DNA from: a virus
DNA: 22,097 nucleotides
Reading direction: 5' to 3' (one strand)
IMG/VR virus record: IMGVR_UViG_3300042295_000322
Location: 1-22,097 of that record
Of the stretch, positions 10,966 to 20,471 are shown one piece after another (position 1 is the first letter of the stretch; each line of letters starts with the position of its first letter). The notes beneath the pieces are model-generated. The model had not been told where the DNA came from and ran no database searches. It saw only the letters and a list, made by a program, of their open reading frames with translations. The translations under genes and the position numbers were made by a program.

Positions 10966-11982
10966 ATGTCCAATCTATTTAAAAAAGCCGCAATATTCAC
11001 TGACATACACTTTGGCTTAAAGTCAAACAGCACGTTGCACAACGAAGACTGTTTGGCTTTTGTCAAGTGGGCCACTGCCAAAGCCCGAGCAGAAGGATGT
11101 GACACCTGTTTGTTTCTAGGCGATTGGCACAACAACCGATCCAGCCTGAACATTGTCACACTCAACTACAGTCTACAAGCTCTGGAGCACATGAACAACA
11201 ATTTTGATCGTGTGCTTTTCATCCCTGGTAATCATGACTTGTATTATCGCGATAAGCGTGATATACAAAGTGTAGAATGGGCCAAACACTTGCCAAACAT
11301 TGAAATATGCAACGATTGGTTTAGTGATGGCAATGTCATCATTGCTCCTTGGCTGTGTGGCGACGATCATAAGAGGATACCCAAACTAAAGGGCAAGTAC
11401 ATGTTTGGGCACTTTGAACTGCCGGGCTACTTGATGAATGCCATGGTAGAGATGCCAGACCATGGTGAGATCCGCAGAGAAGACTTTAACAACTTTGAAC
11501 ATGTGTTTACCGGACACTTCCACAAACGTCAAACCAAGAAAAACATCACCTACATTGGCAATTGCTTTCCGCACAACTATGCCGACGCCGGAGACGACGA
11601 ACGTGGCATGACAGTGTTAGAGTGGGGACAGGAACCTGTGTATCACGCTTGGCCTGCACAGCCACGCTATCGTGTGCTGGGACTGAGCTCAGTTATCGAC
11701 AATGCTGCCACACTGTTAGCCAAAGACATGCACGTTCGCGTACAACTAGACATTGAAATCTCATACGAAGAAGCCAATTTCATCAAAGAAACTTATATTA
11801 AAGACTATGGACTGAGAGAAATGGCTCTTATCCCAAATAAAAATGCCGGCGTTGACACAGACATGGCGCCTGGTGAAGTCAAGTTTGAATCAGTAGATCA
11901 AATTGTCACAGACCAGCTTACAAACATTGAATCTGAATTCTATGATCCAAAACTGTTGTTAAAAATATATCAGACACTATGA
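10966..11982 (+). CDS. 47: Recombination endonuclease subunit gp47 (Mre11/SbcD-like phosphoesterase)
   Basis: A 338-residue protein from the ATG at 10966. An in-frame TTG seven codons earlier is possible but less likely; no strong ribosome site is seen for either. The metallophosphoesterase motifs are complete: D13-x-H15 (FTDIHFG), GDW at 52-54 (D53), GNHD at 88-91, GHFE with H149, and GHFH with H184 and H186. These bind two metal ions in the Mre11/SbcD/gp47 family. With gp46 it forms the nuclease-ATPase complex that resects DNA ends for recombination-dependent replication and degrades host DNA in T4. Its stop overlaps the start of the amidinotransferase gene (ATGA), so its partner gene 46 is now separated from it by two accessory genes. 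Confidence 0.92.
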   Translation: MSNLFKKAAIFTDIHFGLKSNSTLHNEDCLAFVKWATAKARAEGCDTCLFLGDWHNNRSSLNIVTLNYSLQALEHMNNNFDRVLFIPGNHDLYYRDKRDIQSVEWAKHLPNIEICNDWFSDGNVIIAPWLCGDDHKRIPKLKGKYMFGHFELPGYLMNAMVEMPDHGEIRREDFNNFEHVFTGHFHKRQTKKNITYIGNCFPHNYADAGDDERGMTVLEWGQEPVYHAWPAQPRYRVLGLSSVIDNAATLLAKDMHVRVQLDIEISYEEANFIKETYIKDYGLREMALIPNKNAGVDTDMAPGEVKFESVDQIVTDQLTNIESEFYDPKLLLKIYQTL

Positions 11983-13031
11983 TCAGTCCCAATAGTAATA
12001 GCGGATTTCAACCGCTGCAAACTTGCCTGGTAGGTCAATGTTATCCGCCTGATTTTTTTAGTTTTATTCAAGATGCACGATTAAGATCTATCTTTGAACG
12101 GATTTCTATAGAAACAGAAGAAGACTACCAGAAATTAATATCAGTTTTACAAAAGTTTAACGTAAAAGTTATACGGCCAGAAATTTCATCCAACTATGGA
12201 ATGTATTTGTACACTGCTGATACCGGCCAAGAAATTTATAAGCGACCCCCGATGCAACCAAGAGATGATATGATTGTTATTGGCCAAACTCTTCATGCCA
12301 TACACAACGGGTTTGGAGACGGCTATGTTGATCCTTGGAATAGTTTTATTGATTCGGTGAACCCGACACAGTTATTAGATCATCGAAAAGATGAAGACGT
12401 GTGGAAGAAAGTGGCACCACCTTGTATTACCAGGGTAGGTAAAGATTTGTTTTTTGATTTTTATAGTCATGATCCCACATATCACAAAAAAGACTATTTT
12501 AAATTATTACAATCTAAAATTATACCGAATTATTTTAACAAATATAAAATCCACTATGTGGATTGCGGGGGACACAGTGATGCAGTGTTTTCTCCTGTTG
12601 TTCCTGGGTTGATTGTAACTTATATGAATCCGTTGACGTATAAAGATAGTTTTCCCGGGTGGGAGGTTATACAGGTGCCCTGGCATTCACATACTGACAA
12701 TGATCAGGCACTGAGATCTCTAAGAGCAACTCAAGGACAATGGTGGATCAAAAATCAAGAATTAGATCCAGCATTGATTGATTTGGTCAGCACCAAGTTT
12801 AATTCCTGGGTAGGATATTCAATGGAAACACAATTTGATGTTAATCTTTTTATGATCAATCAACAGAATGCTATCATCAATAGCCATAATCCTGCTATTA
12901 TTTTGGCTCTGGAAAGACATGGAATTACCCCACATATCGTTCCATTCAGACATAGATTTTTTTGGGATTGTGGTCTACACTGCGCGACCCTAGACATTGT
13001 GCGAGAAGGTGATTGCATTGACTACTTCTAA
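11979..13031 (+). CDS. Arginine:X amidinotransferase-like enzyme (GATM/StrB family)
   Basis: A 350-residue protein of the amidinotransferase/arginine deiminase superfamily. The region around VDCGGHSDAVFSPVVPGLIV holds the catalytic His199 (and D201) and aligns with the MHIDATFNIIGPG motif of vertebrate glycine amidinotransferase. The C-terminus aligns with GFHCWTCDVRRRG and gives catalytic Cys335 in GLHCATLDIVREG. FDVNLFMINQQNAI (286-299) matches the SMNVLMLDEKRVMV segment. Members transfer the amidino group of arginine to an amine, forming guanidino compounds and ornithine. The Asp that supports the His in GATM sits in FDAADF, but the equivalent here reads VAPPCI, so activity or acceptor may differ. 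The family rules out an ordinary T4 core gene. It overlaps gp47 by 4 bases, overlaps the next gene by 14, and is visibly more AT-rich than gp46/gp47. Confidence 0.82.
   Translation: MISPNSNSGFQPLQTCLVGQCYPPDFFSFIQDARLRSIFERISIETEEDYQKLISVLQKFNVKVIRPEISSNYGMYLYTADTGQEIYKRPPMQPRDDMIVIGQTLHAIHNGFGDGYVDPWNSFIDSVNPTQLLDHRKDEDVWKKVAPPCITRVGKDLFFDFYSHDPTYHKKDYFKLLQSKIIPNYFNKYKIHYVDCGGHSDAVFSPVVPGLIVTYMNPLTYKDSFPGWEVIQVPWHSHTDNDQALRSLRATQGQWWIKNQELDPALIDLVSTKFNSWVGYSMETQFDVNLFMINQQNAIINSHNPAIILALERHGITPHIVPFRHRFFWDCGLHCATLDIVREGDCIDYF
13006..13011 (+). promoter_or_regulatory. Ribosome binding site fixing the TTG start at 13018
   Basis: AAGGTG lies six bases before TTG at 13018, inside the end of the amidinotransferase gene. 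It favours this TTG over the in-frame TTG at 12997 and GTG at 13009. Confidence 0.55.
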
Positions 13032-13872: not shown

Positions 13873-15940
13873 AAATCTCACTGTCAAAAACTTTATGAGC
13901 GTGGGCAATGCCACGCAAGGTATTGACTTTGATCGCAACGACCTTACACTGGTCCTGGGCGAGAATCTTGACTTAGGCGGTGACGGGTCACGCAACGGTA
14001 CAGGTAAAACTACTATCATTAATGCCTTAAGTTATGCATTGTACGGGCAGGCCTTAAGTAATATACGTAAAGACAATCTTGTTAACAAAACCAACGGTAA
14101 GAACATGCTGGTGAGCCTGGACTTTGTCATTGGGGGTCAAGAGTACAAAATTGAACGTGGACGCAAACCCAACGTGCTACGATTCTATGTCAACAACGAA
14201 GCACAAGTGTCTACTGACGAAGCACAAGGCGATAGCCGCGAAACACAAGATGCAATTGAACGTGTGATGAATATGAGTCATGACATGTTCAAACATGTGT
14301 TGGCACTGAACACTTATACCGAACCGTTCTTGAGTTTAAAAGCCAACGACCAACGCAACATCATTGAGCAGTTGTTGGGTATCACCTTGCTGAGCGAACG
14401 TGCAGACGCTATCAAAGAACTCAACCGGCAGACCAAAGACAGCATTTCACAAGAAGAATTCCGTATCCGTGCCGAACAAGAAGCCAACAAGCGCATTGAA
14501 GAACAGATCGAAAGTTTGAAACGCAGGCAAGTGCTTTGGCAAAAGAAATACGATAGTGATGTGGCGTACCTTGTGGCACAGTATGATGACCTAGCCAAGA
14601 TTGACATCGAAGTAGAACTGCTGGCTCACAAAGATCTAGCTGTGTGGACCACAAGGAAACAACAACAAGATGCGTATACCGCTCTAGTTGGTCGACAAAC
14701 TGCTTGGAAACAAAAACAACAAAAAGATATCAGCGAGTTGGAACTAACTTACAACAATCTCAGCCATATTGATATCACAGCTGAACTACAAGCACATGTA
14801 GACTTGGCTGCTTACACACAACGATCTAAAGACATTACTGACCTTGAGAAACTGATTGCCAGGTGTGTTGCCGACGAAGCTCGAGAACAAAAAGTCATTG
14901 ATAAACTCAAAACCGAAATTGAAGAACTAAAAAATCACAAGTGTTATGCTTGCGGACAAGACTTCCATGACGCCAATCACGAAACAGTGTTGGCAACAAA
15001 AGAGAAAGCCCTACAAGAGTCTGCACTGCAGGCGTTGAGTACTAATGGTCAATGGATGGAAAATACAGATGCATTGACTGCATTAGGTGTGCTGGGTGCA
15101 AAACCTACCACACACTATCGAACAGAAACAGAAGCTATTCGACATTCCAGTGAGTTGGAAAACATTCAACACAAGATTGATGCCAAACGTGCAGAAACAG
15201 ATCCCTATGCTGAACAACTGGCAGAGCACACACCTGTAGAAGTTGGCACACAGCCTGTTACACATTACGATACAGAAGCACAGGCAGTTGATCATCGTAG
15301 TCGTATGAACACCCTGCTGACACAGATTGCTACCAAAGGCGAGGAACGGGATCCGTACACAGAACAGATTACAGAAATGCAACAACAAGCCCTGCAAACT
15401 GTCAGCTACGATGCACTCAATGATCTCACAAGATTACAAGAACATCAAGACTTCTTGCTCAAACTGTTGACATCAAAAGATAGTTTTGTACGCAAGAAGA
15501 TCATTGATCAAAACTTGAGTTATTTGAATGCACGCCTTACACACTATTTGGATCGTATTGGCTTGCCACACACTGTGAAGTTTCAAAACGATCTGAGTGT
15601 GATGATTGAAGAACTAGGTCGTGAACTAGACTTTGATAACTTGAGTCGCGGAGAACGCAATCGACTTATCCTATCAATGTCATGGGCATTCCGTGACGTA
15701 TGGGAAAGTTTGTACAGCCCAATCAACTTGTTGTTCATTGACGAATTGATTGACAACGGACTAGACACACAGGGTGTGGAAAATGCCCTGGCTCTGCTAA
15801 AGAAGATGAGTCGTGAACGCCATAAGAGTATATGGCTTGTTAGTCATAGAGACGAACTTGCTGGTCGTGTAGAGAACATTCTCAAAGTAATCAAAGAGAA
15901 TGGCTTCACCAGTTATAATACGGATATAGAACTAGCGTAA
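13859..15940 (+). CDS. 46: Recombination endonuclease subunit gp46 (Rad50/SbcC-like ATPase)
   Basis: A 693-residue SMC-type ATPase. The N-terminal half-site has the opening IKNLTVKNFMSVGN and a Walker A around SRNGTGKTT (K50; note Ser at the usual Ala/Gly position). Long charged coiled coils follow, about residues 180-540, with a zinc hook CYAC at 362-365 near the middle. The C-terminal half-site has the ABC signature LSRGERNRL and Walker B LLFIDELIDNGLD, then the switch His in WLVSHRDE. Length is somewhat above T4 gp46 (560 aa) because of longer coils. With gp47 it resects DNA ends during recombination-dependent replication. The start is TTG with GGAG six bases upstream, overlapping the previous gene by 14 bases. 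Its base composition matches gp47 rather than the AT-richer gene before it. Confidence 0.93.
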   Translation: MIQIKNLTVKNFMSVGNATQGIDFDRNDLTLVLGENLDLGGDGSRNGTGKTTIINALSYALYGQALSNIRKDNLVNKTNGKNMLVSLDFVIGGQEYKIERGRKPNVLRFYVNNEAQVSTDEAQGDSRETQDAIERVMNMSHDMFKHVLALNTYTEPFLSLKANDQRNIIEQLLGITLLSERADAIKELNRQTKDSISQEEFRIRAEQEANKRIEEQIESLKRRQVLWQKKYDSDVAYLVAQYDDLAKIDIEVELLAHKDLAVWTTRKQQQDAYTALVGRQTAWKQKQQKDISELELTYNNLSHIDITAELQAHVDLAAYTQRSKDITDLEKLIARCVADEAREQKVIDKLKTEIEELKNHKCYACGQDFHDANHETVLATKEKALQESALQALSTNGQWMENTDALTALGVLGAKPTTHYRTETEAIRHSSELENIQHKIDAKRAETDPYAEQLAEHTPVEVGTQPVTHYDTEAQAVDHRSRMNTLLTQIATKGEERDPYTEQITEMQQQALQTVSYDALNDLTRLQEHQDFLLKLLTSKDSFVRKKIIDQNLSYLNARLTHYLDRIGLPHTVKFQNDLSVMIEELGRELDFDNLSRGERNRLILSMSWAFRDVWESLYSPINLLFIDELIDNGLDTQGVENALALLKKMSRERHKSIWLVSHRDELAGRVENILKVIKENGFTSYNTDIELA

Positions 15941-15942
15941 TC

Positions 15943-17442
15943 ATGTTTGCAATTATTTTATCTGTTCCAAGAATTGCCGCATTGCGACCAGCGGCGGCGC
16001 CAAGTATCATAAAATCTTTATTGCAGAAGCGTGGCCTTGATTCTAAAATATTAGATATTAATTTAGATTTTCATAGTAACTTTAGAAAATTACATGGAGA
16101 AAAATTATTTTGGAAACTTGATGATTACTTTTTTAATTATCAGATTAATTTAGATCAAGATGAACTGAGGTTATACACTGATTGGATGACCGAGTGGGTT
16201 TACAGAATTAAAAAGTATAATCCTAATTGGCTAATGGTTAGTGTGTTTACCTGGCAGGCGCAAAGATTTACTAGAGATTTTTTATCTCTTTGGAAACAAC
16301 ACACAGACATTCCAGTTGTTATCGGCGGTCAAGGGTTAGTTCGTTGCGAAAATGGAAGTTACGCTGATCGACCCGAGTTTGCATACGAACTAAAACAAAA
16401 AGGATTAATTGCCCATTGGGTAAGAGGCGAAGTTGAAACCACTATAGATTCATTAATATCAGGCAAGTTTGATGCACTAGGGATTGATTCAGATAACTTT
16501 GCTGAGAGGAGTGACGTCAACGCCCACGAGTTTATGAACTTTGACGACTTTGATATTAAAAAATATTACAGCGGATATGAAAATGGTGTGCTACCAATGG
16601 AAACCAGTCGCGGGTGTGTTCGCAACTGTATGTTTTGCGATATTCCTACTATGCACGGAGGATATAGGTATAAAACAGGTGAACGGTTGTTTAACGAACT
16701 AGTACACTACTATGAAAAGTACGGAGTTCGTGACTTTTTCTTTCATGATGCTTTATGTAACGGAAGTGTCAAAGATTTTAGAATATTCAATCGTAAACTT
16801 ATTGAATATTACGAAAAACATAATCTTCCCGATCGCTATTTCAAATATAGTAGCCACTACATTGTTCGCAGTGAGCAGATGATGCAGGAGCGAGACTATG
16901 AATTAATGGGAAGAGGTGGAGCCGAATGTATGGTCATTGGCGTTGAATCAGGAAGCGACCGTGTAAAAGAACATATGAGAAAAGGGTTCACTAACATTGA
17001 TTTAGACTTTACTATGAAGATGTTTAGTAAGCATGGAGTTAATGCTTATTTTCTTATTATTGTTGGTTTTCCCACAGAAACTCGAGAGGACTTTGACCAA
17101 ACACTTGACATGTTGCGTAAATATCAGCCATATGTTGCTGATGGTACCATTATAGGTGTAAACTTAGGAACTACCTTGACAATCGAAGAAGGTACTCCAA
17201 TTTGGTCAGAGTATCCATTACTTAACATAGTAGGAGTTAATGGAAATAGACCCGAGGGACCTGATTGGAAATGTTTGGATAATCCTACACTTAGTTACAA
17301 AGAGCGCATTCATCGTAGAATTGAAGCACAAGAAGTAGCAGTTAAGTTAGGGTATACTTTCTGGAAAGGTGACGACCAACTCAAAGTGTTAATGGACAAC
17401 TATAAAAGTCGCCTTGACCGATTAGCAGGAGTGATTCATTAA
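15943..17442 (+). CDS. Radical SAM enzyme with cobalamin-binding-like N-terminal domain
   Basis: A 499-residue protein. Residues 1-190 have the layout of a B12-binding (BchE-type) domain: PRIAALRPAAAPSIIKSLLQ, a KILDIN strand, WLMVSVFTWQA, VVIGGQGLVR and WVRGEVE. The cobalamin-ligating DxHxxG signature is not visible, so cobalamin binding is doubtful. The radical SAM core follows, with the iron-sulfur motif C225-x3-C229-x2-C232 in SRGCVRNCMFC, then VIGVESGSDRVKEHMRKGF and YFLIIVGFPTETREDFDQTL, both typical of this class. Family members methylate or rearrange unreactive carbons; the substrate here is unknown. It starts 2 bases after gp46, and its stop overlaps the next ATG by one base. It is AT-rich compared with gp46, like the amidinotransferase, suggesting separate acquisition. 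Confidence 0.85.
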   Translation: MFAIILSVPRIAALRPAAAPSIIKSLLQKRGLDSKILDINLDFHSNFRKLHGEKLFWKLDDYFFNYQINLDQDELRLYTDWMTEWVYRIKKYNPNWLMVSVFTWQAQRFTRDFLSLWKQHTDIPVVIGGQGLVRCENGSYADRPEFAYELKQKGLIAHWVRGEVETTIDSLISGKFDALGIDSDNFAERSDVNAHEFMNFDDFDIKKYYSGYENGVLPMETSRGCVRNCMFCDIPTMHGGYRYKTGERLFNELVHYYEKYGVRDFFFHDALCNGSVKDFRIFNRKLIEYYEKHNLPDRYFKYSSHYIVRSEQMMQERDYELMGRGGAECMVIGVESGSDRVKEHMRKGFTNIDLDFTMKMFSKHGVNAYFLIIVGFPTETREDFDQTLDMLRKYQPYVADGTIIGVNLGTTLTIEEGTPIWSEYPLLNIVGVNGNRPEGPDWKCLDNPTLSYKERIHRRIEAQEVAVKLGYTFWKGDDQLKVLMDNYKSRLDRLAGVIH

Positions 17443-17987
17443 TGCACTTAATAATTGATTTTGAAATTGGTGACCAGTTGGGCACTCCTTTAATTAAAAT
17501 TCTAATAGATGATTATATAATCTTGTACGAAGGTCCGGCAATACCACAATTTAATCGTGAATTTGATATTGGCTACAGCGAACACGAACTTAAAATTGTA
17601 CACTTTGGCAAAACAGACACTGATCATCTTTACAATCCTGATGGGTCAATTGCTGTGGACAAATATGTTTACATCAAGTCTATCACAATCGACCAGGTAC
17701 GACTGACTGACACTGAGTTACAGATTGGTCAATTTTGGCCAGTATATGGTCTGTCCTACATTTCAGATATGGTAGATTCTGGTCAAGAATTACCTTCGTA
17801 CATAGCCCCTAATTTATATCTAGGGCACAACGGCACATGGCGGTATACATTTTTCTACCCTTTCATTGATTGGATTATTGAATGCCGCAAAAAAGATAGG
17901 CTAAGTCTGGATAATACTATTTTTAAAACTAGTGCATCTGTGTTGCAAGAAGCTAAAAATTTTTTCAAAGATTTACCTGAGATTTAA
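17442..17987 (+). CDS. Protein of unknown function (181 aa) between two radical SAM genes
   Basis: I do not recognise the family. The chain looks mostly beta: alternating strands such as HLIIDFEIGD, IKILIDDYIILYEG, ELKIVHFGK, VYIKSITIDQVRL. It continues with GQFWPVYGLSYISDM, then LYLGHNGTWRYTFFYPFIDW and a helical tail ending KNFFKDLPEI. The first 120 residues could be a jelly-roll or carbohydrate-binding-like sandwich, an impression from strand pattern only. There is no signal peptide or catalytic motif. It is joined to the upstream radical SAM gene by TAATG and sits 3 bases before the rSAM-SDR fusion. It is therefore co-translated with both and may be a partner, scaffold or substrate. A substrate role would need post-translational modification, which is speculative. 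Confidence 0.7.
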   Translation: MHLIIDFEIGDQLGTPLIKILIDDYIILYEGPAIPQFNREFDIGYSEHELKIVHFGKTDTDHLYNPDGSIAVDKYVYIKSITIDQVRLTDTELQIGQFWPVYGLSYISDMVDSGQELPSYIAPNLYLGHNGTWRYTFFYPFIDWIIECRKKDRLSLDNTIFKTSASVLQEAKNFFKDLPEI

Positions 17988-17990
17988 AAA

Positions 17991-19697
17991 ATGTTCGATT
18001 TTAATGTTATTGACGAGTACCAGATTGAAGTAACCACTTACTGCAATGCCGCGTGTCCGCAATGTCCTCGCAACGTCAATGGTGGTGTGCTTAACCCATA
18101 TCTTAAACTTGAACACCTTCCTAGGCAGGTAATAGACCGTGCGTTTACTGAAGAACTATGCAATCGATTAAGACAAGTGTTCTTCTGTGGCAGTTACGGT
18201 GATCCTATTATGCATCCAGAATTCCTGGATATCTTGCGTGACTTTAGACGCAAGTGTCCTACACTTTGGTTATACATACACACCAATGGTAGCGCACACG
18301 ATACAGAATACTGGACCGAGATGGCCAAGATTATCGGTGGCTTCGGGCAAATAGATTTTAACATTGACGGTCTTGCTGATACCAACCACTTGTATAGACG
18401 CAACACTGACTTTGACAAGATTATCAGCAATGCCACTGCATACATTACCGCAGGCGGCCGTGCAGTATGGAACTACATTATATTTGAACATAATCAACAT
18501 CAAGTCAATCAGGCACAAAAGTTAAGTGTCAGTCTAGGCTTTCGAGATTTTAAATATCGTGCCACTGGTAGATTCTTAAACCACAACACCATGGAAGAAT
18601 TTTCAGAGTGGCCTGTACAAAATCGGCAAGGACAAACAGAGTATGTTATAAAACCCACTGCTCTACCGCAATACAAAAACAAAAGCATTAATATACTGCC
18701 AGATTTAAAAAAACAATACCCAAATATTAAAGAATACTTTGCCAACACAGAAATTTGTTGTGACTCACTAAAAGGCAACAAAGTTGCTATTAATGCCGCA
18801 GGACTTGTGTTGCCGTGCAATATGTTAAATCACAATCTTAGTGACGCTAGGTTCCGTGATCAATCTGTGCTGCCGTGTAGTAATGATTTAAGCACAGTGG
18901 ATGGAGAGAATCAAGTACAAGAATTTGTCAACCGCCACGGTGCTGACAACTTAAACATACATCATCGTTCACTGGAACAGGTGTTTACTAACTCTTTTTG
19001 GGTAGACCTTGTGAACAGTTGGAAGTATAATACATTTCCTGAGCGACTGTTTGAATGCGCACTAACCTGCGGCAAGCAGTTTCAAAAGGTATGGGATCAA
19101 ACAAAAATGAACAAAACATTCTTAATCACTGGTGGTAATCGTGGCCTGGGGCTACAGTTGGTACAGACCTTTGGTGGAACTAGTATTAGCCGTACGCAAG
19201 GTTACGACATTACCAAACATGCCAAAGAAATTGCAGAAATAAGTTTAGACTTTGATGTGTTTGTTAACAATGCATTCGACGGTCCACCACAAGAAGACTG
19301 GGCTAACTTTGCACAATCACAAATATACATGGCTGTGTACGATGCATGGAAAACAGCAAGAAAAACTGGGCATATCATTAACATTGGCAGCACAGGCAGC
19401 AAAAGTATTGTTGCTCCCGAGCCTCGTTTTGAAACATATAGAATTAGCAAGGCAGCATTAGAACACGCAAGTCGTCAAGGCACACAGGCATTTAAACAAA
19501 ACATTGTACCATTTAAAACAATACTTATTACATTAGATAGACTAGATACAGAACTTAGTCGTAGCCGGCCCAATTGGACTGGCAACGGCGTTAATTTAAA
19601 CGACATCAGCAACTTTATACAATACGCTACCGCAGTCAGTTCAAATACTGTGATAGAAGAGGCAACTTTTTACGTAAACTTTGATCATAAGGCATAA
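17991..19697 (+). CDS. Radical SAM/SPASM enzyme fused to a short-chain dehydrogenase (SDR)
   Basis: A 568-residue two-part protein. Residues 1-365 form a radical SAM enzyme: C18-x3-C22-x2-C25 (TYCNAACPQC), FFCGSYGDPIMHPEF, LYIHTNG, DFNIDGLADTNHLYRRNTDF. A SPASM-like cysteine set follows at C256, C257, C276, C296, C356 and C360, suited to extra iron-sulfur clusters. Residues 373-568 form an SDR domain: TGGNRGLG (380-387) for the nucleotide, NNA at 426-428, Ser467, and Tyr483-x3-Lys487 in YRISK. Both active sites look intact. SPASM enzymes commonly modify peptides or nucleosides, and SDRs oxidise alcohols or reduce carbonyls, so a two-step modification on one substrate is plausible. Met373 (ATG at 19107) begins the SDR exactly, so separate initiation is possible. 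It sits 3 bases after the 181-aa gene. Confidence 0.85.
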   Translation: MFDFNVIDEYQIEVTTYCNAACPQCPRNVNGGVLNPYLKLEHLPRQVIDRAFTEELCNRLRQVFFCGSYGDPIMHPEFLDILRDFRRKCPTLWLYIHTNGSAHDTEYWTEMAKIIGGFGQIDFNIDGLADTNHLYRRNTDFDKIISNATAYITAGGRAVWNYIIFEHNQHQVNQAQKLSVSLGFRDFKYRATGRFLNHNTMEEFSEWPVQNRQGQTEYVIKPTALPQYKNKSINILPDLKKQYPNIKEYFANTEICCDSLKGNKVAINAAGLVLPCNMLNHNLSDARFRDQSVLPCSNDLSTVDGENQVQEFVNRHGADNLNIHHRSLEQVFTNSFWVDLVNSWKYNTFPERLFECALTCGKQFQKVWDQTKMNKTFLITGGNRGLGLQLVQTFGGTSISRTQGYDITKHAKEIAEISLDFDVFVNNAFDGPPQEDWANFAQSQIYMAVYDAWKTARKTGHIINIGSTGSKSIVAPEPRFETYRISKAALEHASRQGTQAFKQNIVPFKTILITLDRLDTELSRSRPNWTGNGVNLNDISNFIQYATAVSSNTVIEEATFYVNFDHKA

Positions 19698-19728
19698 CTA
19701 TACAGCAAGGATAAATCGCATACAACAC

Positions 19729-20157
19729 ATGACATGGTTATATCAAGATACCCCAATCGAGACGTTGCCCGAAGAGTGTGTTGGATTTGTTTACTTGATT
19801 ACAAATAATCTCACTGGTCGCAAGTACATAGGCAAAAAATTAGCAAAATTTAGCAAAACAACTTACAAAACTGTAAAACAAAAGAACGGCACAAAGAAGA
19901 AGAAAAAGATACGATCAAAGGTCGACTCAGACTGGAGAGAGTACTATGGGTCAAGCCCAGAATTGACTTCAGACATCGAAAAACTAGGCACCGAAAACTT
20001 CACTAGAGAAATACTTTACTATTGCAACTCAAAGTCAGAATGTAGTTACATTGAGGCAAGAGAACAATTCGCAAGACAAGTATTGGAATCACGAGATTAT
20101 TACAACGGCCACATACAAGTGCGTGTGCATGGCTCTCATATAATAAACAAACTGTAA
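19729..20157 (+). CDS. GIY-YIG nuclease, SegE-like
   Basis: A 142-residue protein from ATG 19729 (MTWLYQDTPIETLPEECVGF). Upstream in-frame codons give no family residues. The GIY-YIG module is VYL at 21-23 and YIG at 33-35 within FVYLITNNLTGRKYIGKKL, followed by a basic Lys-rich loop (48-64), SDWREYYGSS and the catalytic-type Glu near 109 in SYIEAREQF. This exact layout is widespread in T4-like marine phages as a stand-alone SegE-like nuclease of unproven function. Some Seg nucleases promote their own spread between phage genomes. It is the last rightward gene, 31 bases after the rSAM-SDR stop, and is followed at once by the structured non-coding stretch. That combination is notable because GIY-YIG genes often travel with RNA elements. 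Confidence 0.85.
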   Translation: MTWLYQDTPIETLPEECVGFVYLITNNLTGRKYIGKKLAKFSKTTYKTVKQKNGTKKKKKIRSKVDSDWREYYGSSPELTSDIEKLGTENFTREILYYCNSKSECSYIEAREQFARQVLESRDYYNGHIQVRVHGSHIINKL

Positions 20158-20471
20158 GGCAACGATTACGACACTGTGTTGGGCGATGTGGCTCAACTCC
20201 ATTGAGGATTGGTGAGATACCCAATTCAGACTTGGACGTCAAAGGCAATTGCTAACTTAAGGCAACAAATGGTCGGGGATATGTGAAAAAGATACAACCC
20301 CAGCTCATAGGACTTGGATCTATATCGGGTTACTAGGGTTCCGTTGATATGTGAAGCTTGAGTAGGGGGTACCGGTCAACCGCCTCCGCGTAGGAAACTA
20401 CAATCTCATTACGATAGATGACTGCTATACTCAGATAATGGCGTTTTTTGTTCACCGTGCATACGGTGAAC
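20158..20471 (+). ncRNA. Candidate structured non-coding RNA, no known family
   Basis: No convincing reading frame exists here, but many paired segments do. There is an outer stem 20178-20183/20220-20225 enclosing CTCAA/TTGAG (20192-20196/20202-20206), and GGGG/CCCC at 20275-20278/20298-20301. CTCA/TGAG (20304-20307/20359-20362) encloses ATATC/GATAT (20322-20326/20346-20350). A hairpin at 20365-20387 has a five-pair GC-rich lower stem, a UAC bulge and CGG/CCG closed by UCAA. GTAG-GAAA-CTAC at 20390-20401 has a GNRA tetraloop. A perfect 9-bp hairpin with loop GCAT lies at 20450-20471, just after six Ts at 20444-20449. GATATGTGAA occurs twice (20278, 20346). I could not match it to tmRNA, RNase P RNA, group I intron core or tRNA. 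Strand is inferred from the gene upstream. Confidence 0.45.

What the first reader, a model, noticed from the sequence alone, without database searches (positions are those of the whole stretch)
17991..19697. Radical SAM/SPASM enzyme fused to a short-chain dehydrogenase in a phage
One frame encodes an intact radical SAM core (C18, C22, C25), a SPASM-like cysteine set, and a full SDR domain with TGGNRGLG, Ser467, Tyr483 and Lys487. I know no T4 core gene like it. The fusion suggests radical chemistry followed by a redox step on one product. The SDR begins exactly at an internal ATG (19107), so the protein may be made both as a fusion and as a free SDR, or may have arisen by loss of a stop between neighbours.
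Basis: partly seen in the sequence, partly recalled or inferred. Interest (0 to 1): 0.75.

Follow-up and report, generated by a model that had tools for sequence, protein, structure and literature searches.

The report
Phage radical-SAM enzyme fused to reductase
In a large bacterial virus, two enzymes that most of its relatives make as separate neighbouring proteins have been joined into one by a one-base change, at or close to the spot where related viruses swap genes.

Summary
ORF 17991-19697 (568 aa) has an intact radical SAM (rSAM) core and an intact short-chain dehydrogenase (SDR). It is no artefact: of 109 contigs from two scans, 27 are fused, 78 split, 4 partial. All 78 split pairs overlap by ATGA, so the fusion is a one-base frame change at a stop/start overlap. 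Fused rows are one clade on the rSAM tree (100/100). L265 is a second fusion, without the internal ATG, perhaps independent. Four accessory cysteines are conserved: Twitch-like, not SPASM. In the pairs compared, viruses have swapped DNA at, or within about 150 bases after, the junction, so the upstream cassette seems to decide whether the resident SDR is fused. Five of 7 bacterial SDR relatives have such an rSAM neighbour, but 5 of 6 bacterial genomes with the rSAM lack the SDR. Best reading: radical chemistry, then NAD(P)H redox, probably on a sugar. Fusion and origin are shown; substrate is inferred. A free internal SDR is neither shown nor excluded. By gp46 the phage resembles PA5oct-like jumbo phages.

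The parts
17991..19697 (+). fused rSAM-SDR gene, 568 aa plus stop
   Evidence: fused in 27 of 109 contigs, the window included
17991..19085 (+). rSAM half, residues 1-365 (radical SAM core plus C-terminal auxiliary-cluster domain)
   Evidence: PF04055; model of residues 1-372 pLDDT 92.1, pTM 0.90; fold matches SuiB, SkfB, BlsE, MoaA, DesII, BtrN
18042..18065 (+). radical SAM motif C18-x3-C22-x2-C25
   Evidence: invariant in A2, 29 rows
18186..18188 (+). C66 in FFCGSYGDP, invariant, role unknown
18759..19070 (+). span holding four invariant cysteines C257, C276, C356, C360: ligands for one auxiliary Fe-S cluster (inferred)
19086..19106 (+). linker KVWDQTK; in split relatives the rSAM C-terminus just before its TGA
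19107..19110 (+). internal ATG(A), relic of the ATGA stop/start overlap; start codon of the SDR in split relatives
   Evidence: ATGA in 78 of 78 split pairs; ATG-A kept in 27 of 27 fused contigs
19107..19694 (+). SDR half, residues 373-568, 196 aa
   Evidence: PF00106 just below cut-off; fold match 3tfo Z 17.7, 2.5 A over 169 residues
19128..19151 (+). TGGNRGLG dinucleotide-binding motif
   Evidence: 20 of 20 fused representatives
19389..19451 (+). span holding S467, Y483, K487, the catalytic set
   Evidence: 20 of 20 fused representatives; invariant in A3, 26 rows
19681..20157 (+). SegE-like GIY-YIG endonuclease gene next to the SDR; possible driver of gene conversion over the SDR (inferred)
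   Evidence: PF19835 E 2e-33; SDR plus segE tract shared by L081 and L075
15943..17442 (+). second radical SAM gene, cobalamin-binding kind by its profile matches; part of the upstream cassette
   Evidence: PF04055 E 1.8e-17; NCBIfam matches all below their cut-offs
17442..17987 (+). 181-aa protein that travels with the second radical SAM gene (cluster c6, 46 of 109 loci)
   Evidence: no Pfam match

Best explanation
The gene encodes a bifunctional enzyme made by translational fusion of two partner enzymes. The N-terminal half is a radical SAM enzyme with, by its cysteines, one accessory Fe-S cluster (Twitch-like); the C-terminal half is a short SDR that should bind NAD(P)H. In most relatives the two are separate genes joined by an ATGA stop/start overlap. 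In the window's lineage the ribosome-binding site inside the rSAM 3' end is gone and one more base stands before the ATG, putting the SDR in frame (shown by junctions and tree; the order of steps is inferred). Mechanism, inferred: the radical SAM half abstracts a hydrogen from its substrate and leaves a dehydrated, dehydrogenated or epimerised carbonyl compound, which the SDR half reduces (or the SDR oxidises first), as AprD4 and AprD3 do as two proteins. The substrate is most likely a sugar (nucleotide-linked, lipid-linked or on a glycan), for modifying phage or host surface glycans.
For: Catalytic sets intact and both halves under purifying selection; confident models. Of 109 contigs 27 fused, 78 split, 4 partial; 78 of 78 split with ATGA. 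Of 61 further loci tested, 15 repeated DNA already held; of the other 46, 44 were split with ATGA, 1 fused (L265), 1 cut by the contig end. Fused rows one clade, 100/100; their nearest group, rSAM ending WDQT(K/R)*, also lacks the Shine-Dalgarno (support 94/87, not starred; unresolved). Bacteria: 7 of 290 genomes of one phylum have the SDR at E <= 1e-15, and 5 of the 7 have an rSAM of this family as neighbour; one of the 5 is G001, from which the search started. Sugar context: GDP-mannose dehydratase, epimerases, FkbM and asparagine-synthase-like genes around the phage pairs L046-L048, L053, L054, which are close kin; Polysacc_synt (PF01943), epimerase and two glycosyltransferases by L161 and two family-2 glycosyltransferases by L159. 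Fold matches include BlsE (Z 18.3), DesII (17.8), BtrN (16.1), sugar or cyclitol enzymes as I recall (BlsE also from the abstract start). Precedent AprD4/AprD3: PMC5461906, passages only.
Against: Peptide- or protein-modifying enzymes score as high or higher: SuiB 19.6, SkfB 18.4, anSME 17.8, so fold does not pick the substrate. Of 6 bacterial genomes with the rSAM, 5 have no SDR at E <= 0.001, and phage genomes hold further rSAM relatives without it, so the rSAM family does not need this SDR. Two of the 7 bacterial SDR relatives have no rSAM of the family nearby. In the window's group the gene lies between gp46 and segE with few named sugar genes, and the L235-L242 loci, kin of L046, showed no named sugar gene among those scanned. 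SDR halves are exchanged between rSAM types, which argues against a tightly matched substrate channel. pTM 0.70 gives no firm placing of one domain on the other.
Confidence: 0.45

Rival explanations
1. The pair modifies a protein or peptide (for example a tail fibre): the radical SAM half makes the change and the SDR adjusts it by redox.
For: Highest fold Z-scores are peptide- or protein-modifying enzymes SuiB and SkfB; the pairs in L235, L237, L238 and L241 lie a few genes upstream of long repeat proteins that look to me like tail fibres (my reading, not searched).
Against: I recognised no precursor-peptide gene in the loci listed, but made no search for one; sugar genes beside some pairs fit small-molecule chemistry better.
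Confidence: 0.25
2. The pair acts on a nucleotide or pterin-like small molecule rather than a sugar.
For: MoaA scores Z 18.3 and viperin-like enzymes about 15.5; a PTPS-family gene lies upstream of the pair in L235, and ORFs with a like N-terminus in L237, L238 and L240 (by eye).
Against: No such cluster was noticed in the loci, which was not searched with a PTPS profile; these fold scores are no higher than the others.
Confidence: 0.15
3. The fusion has no meaning for catalysis: the halves work on their own, and a free SDR is also made from ATG 19107.
For: ATG followed by A kept in 27 of 27 fused contigs, although residues 374-378 after it all vary; SDRs move between fused and split loci.
Against: No Shine-Dalgarno in 27 of 27 fused contigs; residues 366-371 before it are invariant too, so the Met may be kept as part of the linker; fusion L265 has no ATG at the junction, only a GTG. 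A promoter-like site at 19003-19031 is no more than chance gives (7 found, 8.0 expected).
Confidence: 0.3
4. Assembly or sequencing error joined two genes.
For: A single base separates the two states.
Against: 27 contigs of IMG/VR, in 20 groups at 97% identity, share the frame with differing linker codons.
Confidence: 0.01

Closest known systems
AprD4 / AprD3 (apramycin C3 deoxygenation)
   Same: A radical SAM enzyme with an NADPH-dependent reductase partner, on an amino sugar (PMC5461906, passages).
   Different: Two separate proteins; AprD4's NCBIfam model NF033070 did not match this protein at E <= 0.001 (it matched the upstream radical SAM gene at 19.7 bits, cut-off 500).
BtrN, DesII, BlsE (radical SAM enzymes of sugars and cyclitols; substrates partly recalled)
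   Same: Fold: Z 16.1, 17.8, 18.3 to the rSAM half; four accessory cysteines as recalled for BtrN.
   Different: 16, 11 and 18% identity in the aligned parts; no SDR fused to them (recalled).
NF033640 N_Twi_rSAM (twitch-domain radical SAM proteins)
   Same: Sequence match E 7.2e-9, residues 9-183.
   Different: 35.2 bits against a cut-off of 170.
Split rSAM plus SDR gene pair of related phages
   Same: Same two enzymes, rSAM 46-65% and SDR 57-90% identical to the window's.
   Different: Two proteins, ATGA overlap, in 57 of 78 a GGAGG inside the end of the first gene.
FabG-like and other classical SDRs
   Same: Fold, TGxxxGxG motif and S, Y, K.
   Different: About 194 residues, shorter than the usual ~250 (recalled); 3rkr was the only PDB sequence match of the profile at E <= 0.001.

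Membership tests
Radical SAM superfamily | CxxxCxxC cluster motif in a partial TIM barrel | tested here: met
   PF04055 37.9 bits, cut-off 29.5; motif invariant in 29 rows; fold
SPASM subfamily | about seven cysteines for two auxiliary clusters (definition recalled) | tested here: not met
   beyond the core motif only C66, C257, C276, C356, C360 are invariant in 29 rows; PF13186 not among matches at E <= 0.001
Twitch-domain radical SAM enzymes | one auxiliary cluster in a half-SPASM domain (definition recalled) | tested here: inconclusive
   four-Cys count fits; MoaA and BtrN among fold matches; the cluster itself cannot be seen; NF033640 below its cut-off
Classical SDR | TGxxxGxG motif with S, Y and K of the active site on a Rossmann fold | tested here: met
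   motif positions and S, Y, K invariant or nearly so in 26 rows; fold Z 17.7 to 3tfo; PF00106 25.0 bits, cut-off 26.6, just missed
Classical SDR | catalytic asparagine of the N-S-Y-K set | not tested
   not located; only the NNA motif (residues 426-428) was checked
AprD4-type radical SAM diol dehydratase | score above the cut-off of NF033070 | tested here: not met
   no match at E <= 0.001 for this protein
Tungsten-cofactor oxidoreductase maturase (TIGR04317) | score above 380 bits | tested here: not met
   51.7 bits
Two-step radical SAM / reductase enzyme | SAM cleavage and NAD(P)H turnover on one substrate | not testable with these tools
   needs the purified protein

The most novel reading that the evidence does not exclude
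The rSAM/SDR junction, give or take about 150 bases, is the border between an exchangeable gene cassette (after gp46, ending with the rSAM gene) and a resident SDR-segE block. Each incoming cassette therefore decides, by the frame of its last codons, whether the resident SDR is made as a free enzyme or as the tail of a fusion enzyme; SegE-driven gene conversion may supply the exchange. Fusion has arisen at least once, perhaps twice.
Probability: 0.5. Interest if true: 0.65.

Novelty: new variant of a known kind. Interest (0 to 1): 0.55.

Why it matters
A maintained fusion is strong circumstantial evidence that a radical SAM enzyme and a short SDR serve the same substrate, and the split pair occurs both in phages and in some bacteria with unknown function; either could now be tested. 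The junctions also give a natural series (Shine-Dalgarno plus ATGA, ATGA alone, fusion) for how overlapping genes become one protein.

Tried and rejected
Rejected: assembly error (27 contigs); full SPASM domain; a conserved programmed frameshift on the A run before the ATG, because codon 372 is CGA in 2 and AAG in 1 of 20 representatives. No Rfam match in 15900-20200; promoter-like and terminator-like sites in 17300-20300 no more than in shuffles.

Led nowhere: profile of the rSAM half against PDB sequences (0 matches at E <= 0.1); Pfam on 20 phage genes named 6 of them, and many of those none; the phage collection gave 4 records with partial matches and 0 covering 80% of the query; in BFVD the rSAM half's best match is 28% identical to a 204-aa protein. 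The AU test does not reject one clade of the fused rows plus L265 (p 0.235). Paper searches: searches found nothing; some searches listed papers, of which I saw listings and, for two, passages; none of what I saw describes this fusion. The library holds open-licence PMC papers only.

Rows dropped: L001 and ten loci from contigs already held before the count of 109; 15 of 61 loci as repeats; pairs with dS of 0 or 3 and over before dN/dS. The rows of A2, A3 and the 50-row tree were chosen by me for spread (8 of 20 fused representatives), and the DNA pairs because the trees disagreed there. Changed on checking: best-explanation confidence from 0.5 to 0.45, because 5 of 6 bacterial genomes with the rSAM lack the SDR, left out at first.

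Full report
What is there. Window 17991-19697 is one ATG frame of 568 codons. Residues 12-163 match PF04055 (E 2.7e-9) and residues 447-506 match PF00106 (E 1.5e-5, just under that family's cut-off). C18, C22, C25, TGGNRGLG (380-387), S467, Y483 and K487 are present. AF2 gives pLDDT 90.0 and pTM 0.70 for the whole protein and pLDDT 92.1, pTM 0.90 for residues 1-372 alone. Beyond the core motif, the cysteines invariant in 29 rSAM proteins chosen from 69 are C257, C276, C356 and C360, plus C66 in FFCGSYGDP. As I recall the families, that is a one-cluster count, so I call it Twitch-like and not SPASM.

Is the fusion real. Two scans of IMG/VR gave 109 distinct contigs with the SDR, the window included. 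Of these, 27 are fused, 78 split and 4 partial; one partial, L068, also reads open across the junction. In 78 of 78 split contigs the rSAM stop and SDR start overlap as ATGA; 57 have GGAGG within 20 nt upstream of the ATG and 21 have none of the motifs tested. In the fused set 0 of 27 have it, and 27 of 27 keep ATG followed by A. From two more scans I tested 61 loci: 15 repeat DNA already held, and of the other 46, 44 are split with ATGA, one is fused (L265) and one has the SDR at the contig end. The scans return only the best 80 of 313 and 306 matches, so these counts are not a census.

How it arose. Junctions form a series: WDQGGSIR* with GGAGG and ATGA; WDQTK* with ATGA only; WDQTK-MNK fused, one base longer before the ATG. 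On the rSAM tree of 69 representatives the 20 fused rows are one clade at 100/100. In a second tree of 50 chosen rows the group ending WDQT(K/R)* is their nearest neighbour at 94/87, just short of a starred branch; one search leaves that fork open. The order of loss and gain is inferred from this. L265, on a 194,522-base contig, is fused by a different junction (WDQNKTVANTYRYYITG) with no ATG there. The tree sets it apart from the other fused rows (95/80), but it sits on a long branch and an AU test does not reject one fused clade (p 0.235).

Exchange at the junction. On the SDR tree the fused label needs 4 changes, at least 3 forced by starred branches. I compared DNA along pairs picked for this conflict. 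Window against L028 (split): 54% in the last 150 bases before the SDR ATG, 81% in the first 150 of the SDR, then 87-96% over the next 900. L028 against L119 (both split): 95-98% over the 1050 bases up to the junction, 67% just after it; the 94-98% stretch reaches back about 3 kb. L024 against the window breaks near base 150 of the SDR. L081 (fused) and L075 (split) also break near base 150 and share mainly the SDR and segE, up to about 1.5 kb after the ATG. So one case breaks at the junction and two within about 150 bases after it: the rSAM gene goes with the variable cassette, the SDR mostly with the block to its right. SegE is a GIY-YIG endonuclease by PF19835, a plausible driver; that part is inference.

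Selection and dual products. Median dN/dS is 0.066 for the rSAM half (73 of 190 pairs usable) and 0.065 for the SDR half (138 of 190); dS is near saturation, so the values are crude. The internal Met is invariant in 20 of 20 representatives. The six residues 366-371 before it are invariant too, while 372 and 374-378 vary; codon 374 always begins with A. That is mixed evidence for internal initiation. With no Shine-Dalgarno in any fused contig and no ATG in L265, a free SDR is possible but not supported. A promoter-like site at 19003-19031 is no more than shuffles give.

What it may do. Foldseek ranks BlsE first for the rSAM half (E 8.7e-12). VIA-align gives SuiB 19.6, SkfB 18.4, BlsE 18.3, MoaA 18.3, DesII 17.8, anSME 17.8, BtrN 16.1, viperin-like enzymes about 15.5: peptide and sugar enzymes are close, so fold does not decide. 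The SDR half matches 3tfo at Z 17.7, 2.5 A, 169 residues. Context leans to sugars in part of the family. The phage pairs L046-L048, L053 and L054, close kin of each other, lie among epimerase, GDP-mannose dehydratase, FkbM and asparagine-synthase-like genes. Against this, their kin L235-L242 showed no named sugar gene among the genes scanned; L235 has a PTPS-family and an Fe-S assembly gene instead. The window's own locus lies between a gp46-like gene and segE (gp46 named from recall and from the annotation of the hits), with few named sugar genes. An amidinotransferase-like gene, with four genes between it and the fusion, has weak similarity to HsvA, inosamine-phosphate amidinotransferase and SxtG over its last 60 or so residues.

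Bacterial relatives. A scan of genome contigs with the rSAM profile gave 31 loci. Of six of these genomes searched with the SDR profile, one (G001, Bacteriovoracales) has the SDR and five do not, so the rSAM family often works without it. Of 290 genomes of the phylum of G001, 7 hold the SDR at E <= 1e-15, G001 among them. Five of the 7 have an rSAM of this family as neighbour: L152, L154 and L156 directly on the same strand, L151 with a 106-aa ORF between, L153 convergent. L155 and L157 do not, nor within the 15-16 kb read around them. Near L161 are a Polysacc_synt gene, an epimerase and two glycosyltransferases, three of the four on the other strand; L159 has two family-2 glycosyltransferases. 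L123 and L145 have the rSAM with glycosyltransferases close by but no SDR in the genome.

Known precedent. The two-protein precedent is AprD4 with AprD3 (PMC5461906, passages). PMC5332604 reports a T4-like ocean virus genome with 12 radical SAM genes (passage), so radical SAM genes in phages are not new. Two papers seen only as titles and abstract starts (PMC10666635, PMC6728339) deal with coupling across overlapping genes; the first title says such pairs often encode subunits of heteromeric complexes.

Host lineage. In the phage collection the window's gp46 scores best against Pseudomonas jumbo phages of the PA5oct kind (44.6%; 12 of 2979 records seen), and fused contig L081 is part of a 338,510-base record.

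Verdict. A real fusion enzyme built from a gene pair that recurs in phages and some bacteria, with a well-documented one-base origin and a position at or near a recombination border. The chemistry and the substrate are inferred, a little under even odds (0.45).

Noticed in passing
window 18957-20150; L028, L119, L024, L081, L075: Recombination breakpoints at or within about 150 bases after the rSAM/SDR junction; the SDR-segE block is shared between otherwise different viruses.
   Followed up: yes
window 11979-13031: Amidinotransferase-like protein: weak C-terminal similarity to HsvA, inosamine-phosphate amidinotransferase and SxtG; no Pfam match.
   Followed up: partly
window 15943-17442 and 17442-17987: A second radical SAM gene and a small protein of unknown kind travel together in the cassette (clusters c4 and c6).
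   Followed up: partly
L240:5254-8582: Two neighbouring radical SAM genes, each beside a short SDR-like gene (the first SDR only E 0.0073 to PF00106): perhaps a second kind of rSAM-SDR pair in one phage.
   Followed up: partly
L265:4522-15563: Six other genes with a CxxxCxxC pattern around the second fusion, in a 194-kb contig.
   Followed up: no
L235:4678-5010: An iron-sulphur cluster assembly gene (PF01521) just downstream of the pair, which may serve the radical SAM enzyme.
   Followed up: no
L159: A bacterial locus with several radical SAM genes and two SDR relatives near glycosyltransferases.
   Followed up: partly
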